DNA from: Bernardetia sp. ABR2-2B | Lineage (GTDB): Bacteria > Bacteroidota > Bacteroidia > Cytophagales > Bernardetiaceae | Assembly: GCF_037126435.1 (NCBI RefSeq) | Contig: NZ_CP147020.1 | Coordinates: forward strand, 4,601,001-4,665,000 | Reading direction: 5' to 3' | Length of the DNA: 64,000 nt | In this document: piece by piece, positions 55,824 to 60,755 of the stretch | Numbering within the stretch: position 1 is the first letter of the stretch | How the letters are laid out: every line of letters starts with the position of its first letter | Program-made: the position numbers and the translations under genes | Notes under the pieces: model-generated | Database searches by the model: none | Told to the model about the DNA's origin: nothing | What the model saw: only the letters and a program-made list of their open reading frames with translations

Positions 55824-56204
55824 ATGAAAAAACATATGAAATCTAGCATTTTTCAAAAAATTCTACAATTACTTTTTGTGTTTTATATTATTCTGTATTC
55901 TTCCTGTACTTCTCAAAAAGATGCACAAGAAACAAATGAAGACTATTCAACAGTAAAAGTATATGAAGAAAAAACTGAAAATCCACAAAAAAGAAATAAA
56001 AATAAACTGGAAGGTTTGCTTATTAAAAAAGCAGATAGTTTTTACTTTGTAAAAGACTTTAAACAAGCTCAAACGCTTTATGATATGGCTTTGAATAATG
56101 TTACTGATGCAGAAACGAAGAAATATTTACTGCAAAAAATTGCTGACATAAGAGAAAATATTGAAGAGAATACAACTAACGATTCGATAAAAAATAGAAA
56201 TTAA
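55824..56204 (+). CDS. small predicted lipoprotein with TPR-like end
   Basis: A 126-residue protein. A hydrophobic segment ends FYIILYSSCTS, a lipobox-like site with Cys28. After an acidic, Lys/Asn-rich linker the C-terminus reads KKADSFYFVKDFKQAQTLYD with MALNNVTDAETKKYLLQKIA, which has TPR-like helix spacing. It may bind partners at the envelope. It ends 4 bases before the convergent phosphatase gene. Confidence 0.6.
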   Translation: MKKHMKSSIFQKILQLLFVFYIILYSSCTSQKDAQETNEDYSTVKVYEEKTENPQKRNKNKLEGLLIKKADSFYFVKDFKQAQTLYDMALNNVTDAETKKYLLQKIADIRENIEENTTNDSIKNRN

Positions 56205-56207
56205 TAG

Positions 56208-56945
56208 TTATTTTTTGATACGAATAATAGCCAAATCATCTGTAACTACGTGATTGATTTTCTTTAAGTTTCTAATTTTTCTATCCAAAAAATTATCAAA
56301 CTTTGATTCTTGATTGTCTATTAAAAGATAATCAATTATTTCAGATTCACTTTTTTGATGATTTTTATTTTCTAAATTTTTGAATGTAAATATTCCATCC
56401 GTACAAATTGATAAGTCTGAAAAATTAAAAAGAGAGAGTTTTTGTTGTTGATTCTTATAAAACTCTTCAAAATTTTCTGTCAGATGGTAGCCTAAGTAAT
56501 CTGGTGTGTTATTCTGCTCATATTCTGTAAGCTTTCCATCTACACAAATGAGTCCGTCGCCTATTGTTATAATTTCAGCTTTATAATTTTTTGTATCAAT
56601 AATTCCCAAGATAAGCGTAGAAAGTAGTTCGTTTGTTTCTAAACCTAATTTGTTCTTTATTTCCTTTGTATCCTCTATAAGTTCTTGAAGTATAGTTTTA
56701 AGTTTTGATTGCAAATCTGATTCTTGATTTTCCTTTGAGACAAACTCTTCATAAAACTTATTTTTAGCTATTTTTCTAAGGGTTTTACCATATAAAATAG
56801 AAGCAAAAACAGACTCTGTTCCCATCGTACAACCATCTAAAACGGCAATCAAGATTTGATTAGAAGCGAGTTGTTCTTTTATCAAAAAATCTTCGCAGTA
56901 ATTGGTGTGAAACTCTCCGATTTGTAGTGTGGTGTATATTTTCAT
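56208..56945 (-). CDS. PPM/PP2C-type protein phosphatase
   Basis: A 245-residue cytosolic PP2C-like phosphatase. Metal motifs in order: HTNYCEDFLI (E18-D19), LIAVLDGCTMGTES (D37-G38), IITIGDGLICVDGK, LSICTDGIFTF and VTDDLAIIRI. Overall order and length fit a minimal PPM fold, though divergent. It is the last of four tightly spaced minus-strand genes: mcrB, mcrC, a lipoprotein gene and this one (12-base gap). The link suggests a role connected with the restriction system, but this is inference from position. Confidence 0.8.
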   Translation of the reverse strand: MKIYTTLQIGEFHTNYCEDFLIKEQLASNQILIAVLDGCTMGTESVFASILYGKTLRKIAKNKFYEEFVSKENQESDLQSKLKTILQELIEDTKEIKNKLGLETNELLSTLILGIIDTKNYKAEIITIGDGLICVDGKLTEYEQNNTPDYLGYHLTENFEEFYKNQQQKLSLFNFSDLSICTDGIFTFKNLENKNHQKSESEIIDYLLIDNQESKFDNFLDRKIRNLKKINHVVTDDLAIIRIKK

Positions 56946-56957
56946 TTCTAGTATTTC

Positions 56958-57740
56958 CTAACAACCCATTGGCAAGTTTATCAATATAAAATAATTCGTT
57001 TTACTTCCATTTTTATCTGTTACAACAATTTTAAAATTAAATTGATTAATCATAACAGAACAAGGATAATCATTTGCATCTTTACAATTTTTAGCTCGTT
57101 CTGTAAATTTATTTTTTTCGCTTCCATATTCAATCCTAACAGCTTCTAAAATTTGCTTTGTAGTTACTTTTGGAAATAATTCAGATTCCTTTCTAGAATA
57201 TTCTTTAGAAACAAACGAGTTTTTATTTATAATTAATTTCTGCCATTCTGAGTTAAAATGCTTCCAATTCAATAAATCAAGATGTGCTCCTTCATCAGAA
57301 ACACCCATACTAGTTTGGTAACTTTCAAATACCTCTACATTTGCAATAGAAGAATGTTTTTGAATAATCTCAAAAGTCTTATTTTTAAAATTTTCTCCAA
57401 GCCCTAAATTAATTTTAATAGAATCTGTGTAAATCTTTTCAAAATCTTCTCCTTTATTATCAATATCAGAAGAAATAAATTTGATATCTAGCTTCTCAAA
57501 CTTTACAATGAAAACAGAATCATTTTCAAGTATTTTGTTTACCTCTTTTTTCTGAGGTTCATTATATTTCTGTTCTCTATCACTTAGATTTTTTTTAGGT
57601 TCTTTGTCTTCATTCTCCATTTTTACAGCAAATAGAAAGTCATTTTCTTGACTTTCAGATTTTACAGAGTTCGTTGTTTTATTTTTTGGATTACAAGCCA
57701 TAAAAGCAAGAGATAAAAGGACAAATAATACAAACTTCAT
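56958..57740 (-). CDS. lipoprotein in the mcrBC array
   Basis: A 260-residue protein with a lipobox (LLSLAFMACN, Cys16). The N-terminal third after the anchor is highly charged; the rest is mixed alpha/beta (IQKHSSIANVEVFESYQTSM, NYFILINLPMGC) with cysteines at the C-terminus and in NCKDANDYPCSV. No recognised family. It starts 14 bases after mcrC stops and ends 12 bases before the phosphatase gene, so it should be on the same message. An envelope protein inside a restriction array is unusual. Confidence 0.65.
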   Translation of the reverse strand: MKFVLFVLLSLAFMACNPKNKTTNSVKSESQENDFLFAVKMENEDKEPKKNLSDREQKYNEPQKKEVNKILENDSVFIVKFEKLDIKFISSDIDNKGEDFEKIYTDSIKINLGLGENFKNKTFEIIQKHSSIANVEVFESYQTSMGVSDEGAHLDLLNWKHFNSEWQKLIINKNSFVSKEYSRKESELFPKVTTKQILEAVRIEYGSEKNKFTERAKNCKDANDYPCSVMINQFNFKIVVTDKNGSKTNYFILINLPMGC

Positions 57741-57754
57741 TTTGGGTTTTTATT

Positions 57755-58813
57755 TTAATTGGTTTCAATAATCTCTTTCAACCTCTTTTCAATTTCTCTC
57801 CAATCGGCATTCAAATTTAGTGTTTTTATCTGAATTTGATGCTTTTTGAATTGATAATCTAAATTATATTCTTTTTCTATGGTCGGATAAAGTAAAATTC
57901 CTTTTGCTGTTGTAGTCTTCTCGCTGTTGTCTTCTTGATTCAATAAATAACTGAATAATTGATATAAATTAGCTGAAAATATTTTCTCTTTTTTATAATT
58001 TATAGCCATTGTATTTTGATAATATTTGGCATCAATAATTATTTTTTCGGTTTCATTTTCTAATGAAATATCCGTTTTCATTTGTGGTAAAAAAGTAGTA
58101 TCAGATAAGTTGTTTTCAATCTTTTCAAAATTCCATTTTATAATTTCTGCTTTTACCGTTGTAAATTTTGTCTGTTCTATTTTATAGAAATTACGAATAA
58201 AAGCCTCAAAAAGTTGATTCATTTTTCGTTCATCTCTTGTAAAATCGGAAAAAGTATAGTTTCCTAGTTCGTTTTTATTTTCAGAGGGCAACGTATTTTC
58301 ATAAATAATCTGACAAACATTCATTACAAACCCATAAAACCGATTATTTCTATGAATTTTGATTTGAGAGAAGAGAGAACTTTTGAGTTCAATCTTTTCT
58401 ATCGTTTTAGGAAGTTTTCTTTGCAAAAAAATAAGTTCTGTTTTCAGTTTTCTATCTAAATTCTTTGTTTTGATAAGCCTTTGAACAGTAGAAAGCAGAA
58501 TTTGATTTTGAAGAATATTAAACGAAAAATCATCAAAACCACAAAGCGTTTTTTGCTTTACTAAAAGGTTTTGTTTTAGTGTCTGACTTACTTGTAATTT
58601 TCCTTTTACAGCATTTATTTCCTGCACATTTTCGATGTAATCTCTATCAATTCCACGTTTTAAAAGCACTTTTGTAGCGTTAATTAATACTTTTGCAAAC
58701 AAATCTAAAAGCTCTGTTTTCTCTTCAACATCAACTTTTATTTGTTTGCTTTCATCTAGCTTGTTCCACGCATAACACAGCAAATAGTAAATATTTTTTA
58801 TTGGGATTAGCAT
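57755..58813 (-). CDS. mcrC: McrC-type restriction endonuclease subunit
   Basis: A 352-residue partner of McrB in type IV restriction of modified DNA. IPIKNIYYLLCYAWNKL is the family start, GKLQVSQTLKQN and FDDFSFNILQNQILLSTVQR follow, and the C-terminal PD-(D/E)XK nuclease has FLPQMKTDISLE and IIIDAKYY with D261 and K263. These residues are consistent with an active nuclease. It is 53 bases downstream of mcrB; the gap carries a family B repeat just before the mcrC ATG. Confidence 0.93.
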   Translation of the reverse strand: MLIPIKNIYYLLCYAWNKLDESKQIKVDVEEKTELLDLFAKVLINATKVLLKRGIDRDYIENVQEINAVKGKLQVSQTLKQNLLVKQKTLCGFDDFSFNILQNQILLSTVQRLIKTKNLDRKLKTELIFLQRKLPKTIEKIELKSSLFSQIKIHRNNRFYGFVMNVCQIIYENTLPSENKNELGNYTFSDFTRDERKMNQLFEAFIRNFYKIEQTKFTTVKAEIIKWNFEKIENNLSDTTFLPQMKTDISLENETEKIIIDAKYYQNTMAINYKKEKIFSANLYQLFSYLLNQEDNSEKTTTAKGILLYPTIEKEYNLDYQFKKHQIQIKTLNLNADWREIEKRLKEIIETN

Positions 58814-58818
58814 AAAAA

Positions 58819-58851
58819 AATTACGAATTACGAATTAAAAATTACGAATTG
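58819..58851 (-). repeat. family B repeat between mcrB and mcrC
   Basis: On the minus strand CAATTCGTAATTTTTAATTC then GTAATTCGTAATTT, ending about 6 bases before the mcrC ATG. It takes the place of the ribosome binding site in the middle of an operon. Confidence 0.65.
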
Positions 58852-58865
58852 ATAAGACAGCAGAA

Positions 58866-60755
58866 TTAATTGTGCAATACCTTCATCATCTCCTCCACTT
58901 TCTCCAAATTATCAAACCAGATTTCTTCTAAAAGTGGTTGTATTTCAAACTGAATAACTTGGTTAAACCATTTATTTTCTTTTTGTGTTTCCTTTTCATA
59001 ATCACAAAAATAACTGTGTCCAATCTGAAAACCTTCTCCCAAATTCATATCTGATGCTATTTCATTATTTATTCTCTGAATAGCATTTGAAATATGATTG
59101 ATAAGTTCTTTAGAAATTCCTTTTTGAGCTAAAAATTCTTTAAACTTCTCTCCAAAATCTGGCTTTAGACTAATAAAAGCAAAACGCCTACGAAGCGCAT
59201 AATCTACCATAGCAAGTGAACGGTCAGCCGTATTCATCGTTCCGATAAGATACAGATTTTTAGGAACATAAAACGTTTCATTCTCGTCTTCTGAATAGGT
59301 CAGTTTTAGAGCAAACTTTTCTTCTCGCTTATCGGCTTCAATAAGCATCATTAGTTCGCCAAAAATTTTGCTCAAATTTCCTCTGTTTATCTCATCAATG
59401 ATAAAGAAGAAACTGCGTTCTGGGTGGGCTTGAGCTTTCTTACAAAAATCATAAAAAACACCATTCTGTACTTCAAAACCTCCTGTTTTATTGGGACGCA
59501 ATCCTTGTATGAAATCTTCATAACTATACGACTGATGAAACTGTACCATTTCTATATTGAGATTATTGGTCTGTCCCATAATTTGATAAGCAAGTTTACG
59601 AGCAATAAACGTTTTCCCTACACCTGCTGCACCTTGTAAGATGATATTTTTCTTTCTTTTCAAAATTTCTACCGTTTCAAAAAACTGCTCTTCACTAATA
59701 AATGGCTTTTCTTCATCTGTTTTGAAGTCATACTTTTTGATGACTTGCTTCTTTGCAATTTGCCTTTCCTCATCTTCTTTTTCTTCTATAATTGCCCTAA
59801 TAATCTGATAATCCTTCTTACTTACTTCAAACAAACTCCCTTGATTATTACGCAAAACAGCACAATCTTTCAAATCTTCATTATTTTTTAGCTCCTTCCA
59901 ACTTATCGGAACTTCTAGTTTTTCGATGAGCTTAAATTCAATTATTTTATCGTCTCCTATTTCGTGCAGAGGTTTTGTAATTTGATAAATTGCTTTTATT
60001 TGCTTGGTTGGCGTACTTTCATAGCCCAAAACGATGTCTTTCTTTCTTACATTTTCAAAGTTTTTGTAGGTATTTCGCTTGTGTCCTTTGTCTGTGAGAG
60101 CTGTGTAGGTTTGTGTTTCTCCTACTTTACTTTCACTAATACTCCAAATTTTAGGATTTGCATTGAGCCACCAATAATTTTCGTTTTCTATTTCCTGTTT
60201 TTGCTCTTCGTATTCGTTTTGTTCGTCTAAAGTTTGAACTATATCTATATCTACTGGTAAATTATATTTTTCAAAAGTTTCGGCAAGTTCTGGGTTTTTT
60301 AATAAATACTGTTCTAGTACAAGGTTATACTTTCTAGCACTTACAAACCTGTCATTAGAAAATAAATACTCCTTCTTACCATTAGCAGAAAATTTAGAAT
60401 GCTCAAAGGGTTTATCTGTAATCCATTCTATTTTTCTGGCTTTATACATAGGATGATTTTTGTAAGCTCCTATATCATAACTATCTAATACTTCACTTGT
60501 AATAATTCCTATTCCCAAACAAAAATTGAAGCCTTTTGCAGCAAAGATAACATCTCCTATTTTACACTTTGCAAATAGCGCAAACCTATGATTGTAATCT
60601 AACCCAGCTCCGTAAGAAGAAGGTAAATGACTAGCTTTTTTCACTGCATATTTCATTTCTATAAAACTATTTTCAAGATAATACTCCCAATTATTATCTA
60701 AAGAATCAATATCTACTTTGTAATAATTACGATTATTTTTTTTCTGTGATTGCAT
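58866..60755 (-). CDS. mcrB: McrB-type AAA+ GTPase with tandem EVE-like domains
   Basis: A 629-residue protein. Residues about 15-165 look like an EVE-like reader (ALFAKCKIGDVIFAAKGF, LGIGIITSEV). A second, more typical EVE domain starts NYWWLNANPKIWSISE (W195-W196) and includes RKKDIVLGYESTPTKQIKAI. The AAA+ motor has Walker A QGAAGVGKTFIA (K381), SFFFIIDEINRGNLSKIFGE as Walker B, and the McrB hallmark LIGTMNTADRSLAMVDYALR. EVE domains of PUA-like fold are known readers of modified bases, so the tandem pair may sense modified cytosine or other marks on foreign DNA. First gene of the array. Confidence 0.92.
   Translation of the reverse strand: MQSQKKNNRNYYKVDIDSLDNNWEYYLENSFIEMKYAVKKASHLPSSYGAGLDYNHRFALFAKCKIGDVIFAAKGFNFCLGIGIITSEVLDSYDIGAYKNHPMYKARKIEWITDKPFEHSKFSANGKKEYLFSNDRFVSARKYNLVLEQYLLKNPELAETFEKYNLPVDIDIVQTLDEQNEYEEQKQEIENENYWWLNANPKIWSISESKVGETQTYTALTDKGHKRNTYKNFENVRKKDIVLGYESTPTKQIKAIYQITKPLHEIGDDKIIEFKLIEKLEVPISWKELKNNEDLKDCAVLRNNQGSLFEVSKKDYQIIRAIIEEKEDEERQIAKKQVIKKYDFKTDEEKPFISEEQFFETVEILKRKKNIILQGAAGVGKTFIARKLAYQIMGQTNNLNIEMVQFHQSYSYEDFIQGLRPNKTGGFEVQNGVFYDFCKKAQAHPERSFFFIIDEINRGNLSKIFGELMMLIEADKREEKFALKLTYSEDENETFYVPKNLYLIGTMNTADRSLAMVDYALRRRFAFISLKPDFGEKFKEFLAQKGISKELINHISNAIQRINNEIASDMNLGEGFQIGHSYFCDYEKETQKENKWFNQVIQFEIQPLLEEIWFDNLEKVEEMMKVLHN

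What the first reader, a model, noticed from the sequence alone, without database searches (positions are those of the whole stretch)
56208..60755. McrBC array with tandem EVE-like readers, a lipoprotein and a PPM phosphatase
Four minus-strand genes follow each other with gaps of 53, 14 and 12 bases. mcrB carries two EVE-like domains in series before an intact McrB motor; mcrC has an intact nuclease core. The two extra genes, a lipoprotein and a PP2C-like phosphatase, are not part of classical type IV restriction. Tandem readers could widen or sharpen recognition of modified bases, and the phosphatase could switch the system. That the four genes work together is inferred from spacing only.
Basis: partly seen in the sequence, partly recalled or inferred. 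Interest (0 to 1): 0.62.

Follow-up and report, generated by a model that had tools for sequence, protein, structure and literature searches.

The report
McrBC with swappable tandem readers
A Bernardetia-like bacterium carries a DNA-cutting defence system of a known kind whose DNA-reading half, two sensor domains in a row, has been reshuffled between close relatives, while the phosphatase and lipoprotein genes beside it look like mere neighbours.

Summary
The four minus-strand genes are real. mcrB and mcrC encode an intact-looking NxxD-type McrBC pair. The tandem-reader claim holds: McrB residues 193-320 are a Pfam EVE domain; residues ~8-165 match no Pfam family, but their predicted fold is closest to EVE/YTH domains (VcaM4I, Z 11.9). 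EVE plus this domain recurs in McrB of other Bacteroidota, in both orders. The phosphatase switch is not supported: homologs of the PP2C gene lie without mcrBC in 5 of the 9 family genomes that have one, and in 19 of 19 loci outside the genus (two genomes are in both counts). One relative keeps a broken copy between BadF-like and ruvB genes, with no mcrBC. The lipoprotein recurs beside mcrBC in one other genome only. Between two close relatives (motor dS 0.11, pyrD dS 0.09) the readers differ at dS 0.7-1.8; a ~230-residue N-terminal module is missing in two of four genomes; in a third genome the EVE domain is replaced by Mrr_N. So this is a known kind of restriction system with a recombining specificity block, not a new four-gene system. 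Target modification and effect of the exchange are unknown.

The parts
58866..60755 (-). mcrB: [EVE/YTH-like reader d1]-[EVE]-[AAA+ McrB GTPase motor], 629 aa
   Evidence: ORF; Pfam; NCBIfam NF008457 over 351-620, below its full-length cut-off
   Evidence: AlphaFold2 model pLDDT 73; Foldseek E 2.9e-5 and VIA Z 11.9 to VcaM4I 6yex
59796..60179 (-). second reader domain, canonical EVE, McrB residues 193-320
   Evidence: PF01878 E 2.4e-10
59181..59648 (-). McrB motor core (AAA_5), residues 370-525; NxxD signature NTAD at 508-511
57755..58813 (-). mcrC nuclease subunit, 352 aa
   Evidence: NF007277 343.2 bits vs cut-off 338; PF10117
56958..57740 (-). lipoprotein-like ORF in a variable slot between mcrC and the phosphatase; judged a neighbour, not a part
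   Evidence: hydrophobic start ending in Cys16, read from the sequence; no Pfam; absent from the G003 and G005 loci
56208..56945 (-). PP2C/PPM phosphatase ORF, conserved acids; judged an older resident gene, not a part
   Evidence: PF13672; invariant residues; without mcrBC in other genomes

Best explanation
This is a modification-dependent (type IV-like) McrBC restriction system. By analogy with EVE and YTH readers, the two PUA-superfamily reader domains at the McrB N-terminus would flip and hold modified bases in incoming DNA; the GTP-driven McrB ring then translocates and McrC cuts. So the locus keeps the cutter and changes what it recognises. The downstream phosphatase is an older resident of the same chromosomal spot and the lipoprotein is variable cargo. 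Shown here: domains, conservation, mosaic pattern, distribution of phosphatase and lipoprotein in the loci examined. Inferred: base flipping, the target modification, that specificity changes with the block, and that the exchange is adaptive.
For: Domains. d1 fold. Tandem recurs: 13 of 375 class genomes have a d1 match; in 6 of the 13 (own included) one McrB holds d1 and a Pfam EVE, three as d1-EVE and three as EVE-d1. Mosaic: for G003 vs G004, dS is 0.09 pyrD, 0.11 motor, 0.22 BadF, 0.25 phosphatase, 0.26 mcrC, but 0.67-0.93 in d1 and 1.78 in EVE; nucleotide differences are 226 of 939 in the readers vs 22 of 810 in the motor; the jump lies near residues 345-365. Window vs G004: EVE 12.6% different, motor 17.8%, d1 42.7%, so the modules have different histories. 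EVE replaced by Mrr_N (E 2.1e-19) in G005. A ~230-aa N-terminal module is present in G003, G005 and G289, absent in window and G004, with a clean ~689-base difference between G003 and G004. Phosphatase and lipoprotein as neighbours.
Against: d1's model is of moderate confidence (pLDDT 73; 5 aligned rows), its Foldseek TM-scores to the top matches are only 0.44-0.50, and by sequence it matches no PDB chain. The legend of Fig. [quoted passage not shown] Only four genomes of the genus carry the locus, so exchange events are few and their direction unknown; dS near or above 1 is saturated. No base pocket was mapped and the target is unknown. The phosphatase stays beside mcrBC in all four genomes that have the locus, so a functional link cannot be excluded.
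Confidence: 0.72

Rival explanations
1. The four genes are one regulated defence operon: the phosphatase (and perhaps the lipoprotein) switches McrBC on or off, as TerY-P modules with a PP2C-like enzyme are proposed to do with CoCoNuT systems.
For: Tight spacing 52/14/12 bases. The phosphatase follows mcrC, or mcrC plus one ORF, in 4 of 4 loci of the genus that have mcrBC. PP2C-like enzymes occur with type II and III-A CoCoNuTs (PMC11090510, passages).
Against: 0 of 19 phosphatase loci outside the genus show mcrBC in the DNA held; G001 has the phosphatase with ruvB and no mcrBC; G002 keeps a broken copy between BadF-like and ruvB genes. 0 of 16 inspected mcrC loci from other genera (of 38 other genomes with a match) show a homolog of this phosphatase or lipoprotein in 1.5 kb flanks. 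Of the 8 window proteins scanned (these four and four neighbours) none matches a vWA or kinase family; the small ORF 55824-56204 has a sub-threshold match to a vWA-MoxR associated region (19.3 bits, cut-off 27), which is not the vWA domain itself. The McrB motif is NxxD, not the CoCoNuT NxD. Terminator-like stems lie on the minus strand inside the lipoprotein gene (4 such sites in the region vs 1.5 +/- 1.5 expected), weak evidence at best.
Confidence: 0.1
2. It is not modification-dependent but a sequence-reading restriction enzyme of the LlaJI/PcaI sort, an McrBC-like cutter protected by a methyltransferase.
For: McrBC-like cutters with cognate methyltransferases exist (PMC12707154 and PMC8989522, passages). 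The relative in G289 is followed by a C5-methyltransferase and an R.HinP1I-family gene.
Against: The readers are EVE and EVE/YTH-like, not B3. No methyltransferase match among the 8 window proteins scanned. The two C5-methyltransferase loci of this genome lie about 2.7 Mb away on the contig; one is fused to an HpaII-family nuclease, the other stands beside a weakly SacI-like ORF (20.4 bits, cut-off 19.3). In G289 the methyltransferase has its own HinP1I-type partner. Adenine methyltransferases were not searched.
Confidence: 0.12
3. The reader divergence reflects fast point evolution (relaxed or diversifying selection) rather than exchange by recombination.
For: dN/dS is higher in d1 (0.17-0.84 over the pairs) than in the motor (0.08-0.15 where dS was finite).
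Against: Synonymous divergence also jumps, from 0.11 in the motor to 0.67-1.78 in the readers for G003-G004, which selection on protein does not readily produce; a whole domain is replaced in G005 and a module is missing in G004.
Confidence: 0.06

Closest known systems
EVE-McrB type IV systems (Bell et al. 2020, PMC7641849; section 9 and passages seen)
   Same: EVE specificity domain fused to McrB GTPase; common in Bacteroidetes; extra domains often present
VcaM4I EVE-HNH endonuclease (PMC7897488; passages and section 19 seen)
   Same: d1's predicted fold matches its EVE domain best
   Different: VcaM4I joins one EVE domain to an HNH nuclease; no GTPase motor
Thermococcus gammatolerans McrB, a YTH-McrB fusion binding 6mA (passages in PMC12707154 and PMC7641849; the original paper is not held)
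   Same: YTH-like reader on an McrB motor
   Different: One reader described in the passages seen; two here
CoCoNuT systems with TerY-P (PMC11090510; section 6 and passages seen)
   Same: McrBC core; a PP2C-like gene nearby
   Different: NxxD motif; no vWA or kinase match among the proteins scanned; phosphatase not tied to mcrBC in the other loci examined
LlaJI and PcaI McrBC-like restriction-modification systems (passages in PMC12707154, PMC8989522)
   Same: McrB/McrC-like cutter
   Different: No methyltransferase among the scanned neighbours; EVE-type readers

Membership tests
McrBC (type IV-like) restriction system | McrB AAA+ GTPase motor with NxxD signature | tested here: met
   AAA_5 E 3.1e-24; NF008457 310.7 bits over the motor, below its full-length cut-off of 637; NTAD at 508
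McrBC (type IV-like) restriction system | McrC-family nuclease subunit in the next gene | tested here: met
   NF007277 above cut-off, PF10117, D...DAK stretch; a separate DUF2357 match was not reported
McrBC (type IV-like) restriction system | cleavage depends on modified bases | not testable with these tools
   needs biochemistry
EVE family, second domain | EVE profile match above cut-off | tested here: met
   PF01878 41 bits vs cut-off 23
EVE family, first domain | Pfam EVE match by sequence | tested here: not met
   no Pfam match in residues 1-190 at E 1; hhalign with the EVE set aligns only 16 columns
EVE/YTH (PUA superfamily) fold, first domain | EVE/YTH fold | tested here: met
   predicted fold only: VIA Z 11.9, 135 aligned, 3.5 A to 6yex; YTH about 10-11; Foldseek TM 0.44-0.50
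CoCoNuT | NxD instead of NxxD motif in McrB | tested here: not met
   NTAD = NxxD; definition
TerY-P triad | vWA protein and Ser/Thr kinase beside the PP2C gene | tested here: not met
   none of 8 proteins scanned from window 54650-61719 matches a vWA or kinase family; a sub-threshold vWA-MoxR associated match in 55824-56204; genes further out not scanned
LlaJI/PcaI-like restriction-modification | cognate methyltransferase beside the genes | tested here: not met
   no methyltransferase among the same 8 proteins; C5 genes about 2.7 Mb away; adenine methyltransferases not searched
PPM/PP2C phosphatase (the neighbour gene) | conserved metal-binding acids | tested here: met
   D37, D183, D236 and others invariant in 14 of 14 aligned; that these are metal ligands is recalled

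The most novel reading that the evidence does not exclude
The mcrB reader region is an allelic cassette, analogous to HsdS in type I systems. Conserved sequence on either side (the start of mcrB with its BadF-like neighbour, and the motor) lets relatives swap, drop or replace reader modules in place. Two readers in series check two marks or two positions, so the population holds a shifting repertoire of modification specificities on one motor and nuclease.
Probability: 0.4. Interest if true: 0.58.

Novelty: new member of a known kind. Interest (0 to 1): 0.4.

Why it matters
It corrects a likely over-reading (a phosphatase-switched McrBC operon) and points to something testable: McrB specificity modules exchanged at one locus between near relatives. 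That gives natural chimeras for mapping which domain reads which DNA modification, and whether tandem readers act as an AND or an OR gate.

Tried and rejected
Phosphatase and lipoprotein as system parts: rejected on distribution. Limits of that count: 22 of the 38 other genomes with an mcrC match were not inspected for neighbours; there the flanks were only 1.5 kb; neighbours were compared by BLAST with the window's own proteins only, so an unrelated PP2C would be missed; one of the 16 mcrC loci (L071) is partial; several loci are cut by contig ends.

d1 as a recent duplicate of the EVE domain: not supported; hhalign aligns only 16 columns. Lipoprotein function from its fold: model pLDDT 67.7, no Foldseek match at E 0.001 or better, best VIA Z 8.1 over 96 residues at 3.0 A, not convincing. 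The lipoprotein's part 79-260 recurs in three proteins of other class members with a different N-terminus, none beside mcrBC in the stretch held; this gave no function. Sequence search of d1 against PDB: nothing at E 10; of the phosphatase: two chains above E 0.3, taken as chance; of the EVE domain: best E 0.011. Promoters: 33 sigma-70-type sites found, 26 +/- 5 expected; two overlapping ones lie just upstream of mcrB and some near the start of the lipoprotein gene, but none stands out. A Bacteroidota-type pattern has 16 matches in the window (7.7 expected) but only two in this region, inside genes and one of them on the other strand (that this is the phylum's consensus is recalled). Of the 12 d1 loci outside the own genome, frames L105 and L110 picked by my script were not the matching frame and are unresolved; L111 has a stop, and what looks to me like a cut-down EVE gets no Pfam match; L112-L115 lack a Pfam EVE match at E 1e-5.

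Papers: on tandem EVE matched unrelated words; the whole-word repeat with six terms found one unrelated paper. So that library, under those terms, holds nothing on tandem EVE readers; most subscription papers are not in it. Searches for mosaic or swapped McrB readers listed nothing on it by title or by the start of the abstract; most of the listed papers were not opened.
Full report
What is there. One search confirms four minus-strand ORFs, with gaps of 52, 14 and 12 bases. The window is bases 4601001-4665000 of contig 1 of a 5.4 Mb genome. The one named record with the same gene order is a Bernardetia metagenome-assembled genome (L013), so I call the host Bernardetia-like.

McrB and McrC. McrB (629 aa) has a Pfam EVE domain at 193-320 and an AAA_5 motor at 370-525, with Walker A at 375, IIDEIN at 452 and NTAD at 508. 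McrC passes the curated cut-off of NF007277. Both core parts look intact.

The first domain. Residues about 8-165 match no Pfam family at E 1 and no PDB chain by sequence at E 10. An AlphaFold2 model from five aligned relatives (pLDDT 73, pTM 0.71) has the order strand-helix-strand-helix-four strands, the order given for the EVE barrel in PMC7641849 (passage). Foldseek's first match is the EVE endonuclease VcaM4I (E 2.9e-5, TM 0.50). VIA-align gives Z 11.9 over 135 residues at 3.5 A; YTH domains follow at about 10-11 and two archaeal proteins, PH1033 and MJECL36, at 10.2-10.5 (that those two are EVE-fold proteins is recalled). So 'EVE-like' holds as a fold prediction; EVE and YTH cannot be told apart. 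It is not a recent copy of the second domain.

The tandem is recurrent. A profile of d1 matches 13 of 375 genomes of the class. In 6 of the 13 (own included) one McrB holds both d1 and a Pfam EVE: d1 first in the window, L104 and L106; EVE first in L107, L108 and L109. L111 is broken by a stop. In L114 the d1-like part lies inside the motor by my reading of the frame, in L115 it precedes an Mrr_cat nuclease, in L113 an alpha/beta hydrolase; L112 matches no family; L105 and L110 were not resolved. EVE-McrB fusions are already known from nearly 300 genera (PMC7641849, section 9); the legend of its Fig. 7 says EVE occurs in either drawn position 'but not both', which a tandem of EVE and an EVE-like domain does not strictly contradict.

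At the same locus G003 and G005, and at another place the distant G289, have a further ~230-residue N-terminal module that window and G004 lack. G003 and G004 are 93.6% identical up to the first codons of mcrB and resume about 689 bases later in G003. In G005 the EVE domain is replaced by Mrr_N (PF14338, E 2.1e-19). For G003-G004, dS is 0.09 (pyrD), 0.11 (motor), 0.21 (the small convergent ORF), 0.22 (BadF-like), 0.25 (phosphatase), 0.26 (mcrC), but 0.67-0.93 (d1), 1.78 (EVE) and 1.14 (linker). Nucleotide differences are 226 of 939 in the two readers vs 22 of 810 in the motor (Fisher p 1e-42; sites are not independent, so only a guide). The window's EVE is closer to that of G004 than its motor is (12.6% vs 17.8% different), while its d1 is far (42.7%). 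Breaks lie near residues 150-165 and 345-365, about the domain edges. Recombination explains this better than selection on point changes, because synonymous sites jump too.

The phosphatase. It is an intact-looking PP2C-type protein: 14 of 14 aligned relatives keep the acids at 18, 19, 37, 130, 183 and 236, and dN/dS among five genomes of the genus is 0.10-0.14. In the family, 9 of 11 genomes have a match; mcrBC lies beside it in 4 of those 9 (own, G003, G004, G005). G001 has it 44 bases before ruvB, without mcrBC; G002 has a broken remnant between the BadF-like gene and ruvB; G006, G009 and G010 have distant homologs (28-34%) without mcrBC. In G006 the BadF-like gene and ruvB are about 540 bases apart, while in the window genome, G003 and G004 ruvB is 80-104 kb from the phosphatase. 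The simplest history is an older BadF-phosphatase-ruvB neighbourhood into which mcrBC came; loss in G002 is not excluded. G220 and G322 have both a phosphatase and a distant mcrC, and G168 a phosphatase and a d1-bearing McrB, in each case at different places. On the other side, mcrC matches 39 of 395 genomes of the phylum sample; in the 16 of the 38 others that I inspected, none has this phosphatase or lipoprotein in the flanks.

The lipoprotein. It is present at the locus in the window and G004 (73%, dN/dS 0.42), absent in G005, and in G003 another 111-aa ORF, membrane-like by eye, sits in its place. In the family it matches in 3 of 11 genomes and in the phylum sample in 4 of 395, own included in both; outside the window and G004 no mcrBC lies in the stretch held. 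If it is an exported lipoprotein, a direct part in cytosolic restriction is unlikely. Its model gave no convincing fold.

Mechanism. The EVE domain of VcaM4I flips 5mC or 5hmC into a pocket (PMC7897488, section 19), and a YTH-McrB binds 6mA DNA (PMC12707154, passage). By analogy the two readers sense modified bases, the McrB ring translocates and McrC cuts. The host probably makes 5mC itself: it has a C5-methyltransferase fused to an HpaII-type nuclease and a second one beside a weakly SacI-like ORF. If so the system must spare those marks, which limits its specificity; this is an inference. It is not a CoCoNuT by the NxD test.

Verdict. Observation confirmed; tandem readers supported; the four-gene system is not. 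The new point is the exchangeable reader block. The evidence is good for a mosaic in a small sample and weak for what it does.

Noticed in passing
window 58826-58851: The mcrB-mcrC spacer holds an AATTCGTAATT-type repeat; a 26-base pattern of it has 106 matches in the own genome (50 forward, 56 reverse, up to 2 mismatches, some overlapping; control 0), an abundant interspersed repeat of unknown role.
   Followed up: partly
L090:2051-7515 (G289): The closest mcrBC relative found outside the genus is followed by a C5-methyltransferase and an R.HinP1I-family gene, a small defence cluster.
   Followed up: partly
L028:2126-4222 and L090:100-1983: A MutL-like ORF (my reading of the sequence, no profile run) lies just upstream of the mcrBC region in both G005 and the distant G289, perhaps a shared insertion spot.
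   Followed up: no
L100:7912-9897: One ORF fuses a C5-cytosine methyltransferase with an HpaII-family restriction nuclease in the window's own genome.
   Followed up: partly
L087, L088, L089: Relatives of the lipoprotein's part 79-260 carry a different N-terminus that reads like an SH3-type domain (not profiled); all six aligned proteins end in P-x-G-C.
   Followed up: no
L114:22-2640: A d1-like domain seems to be inserted inside the McrB GTPase itself.
   Followed up: no
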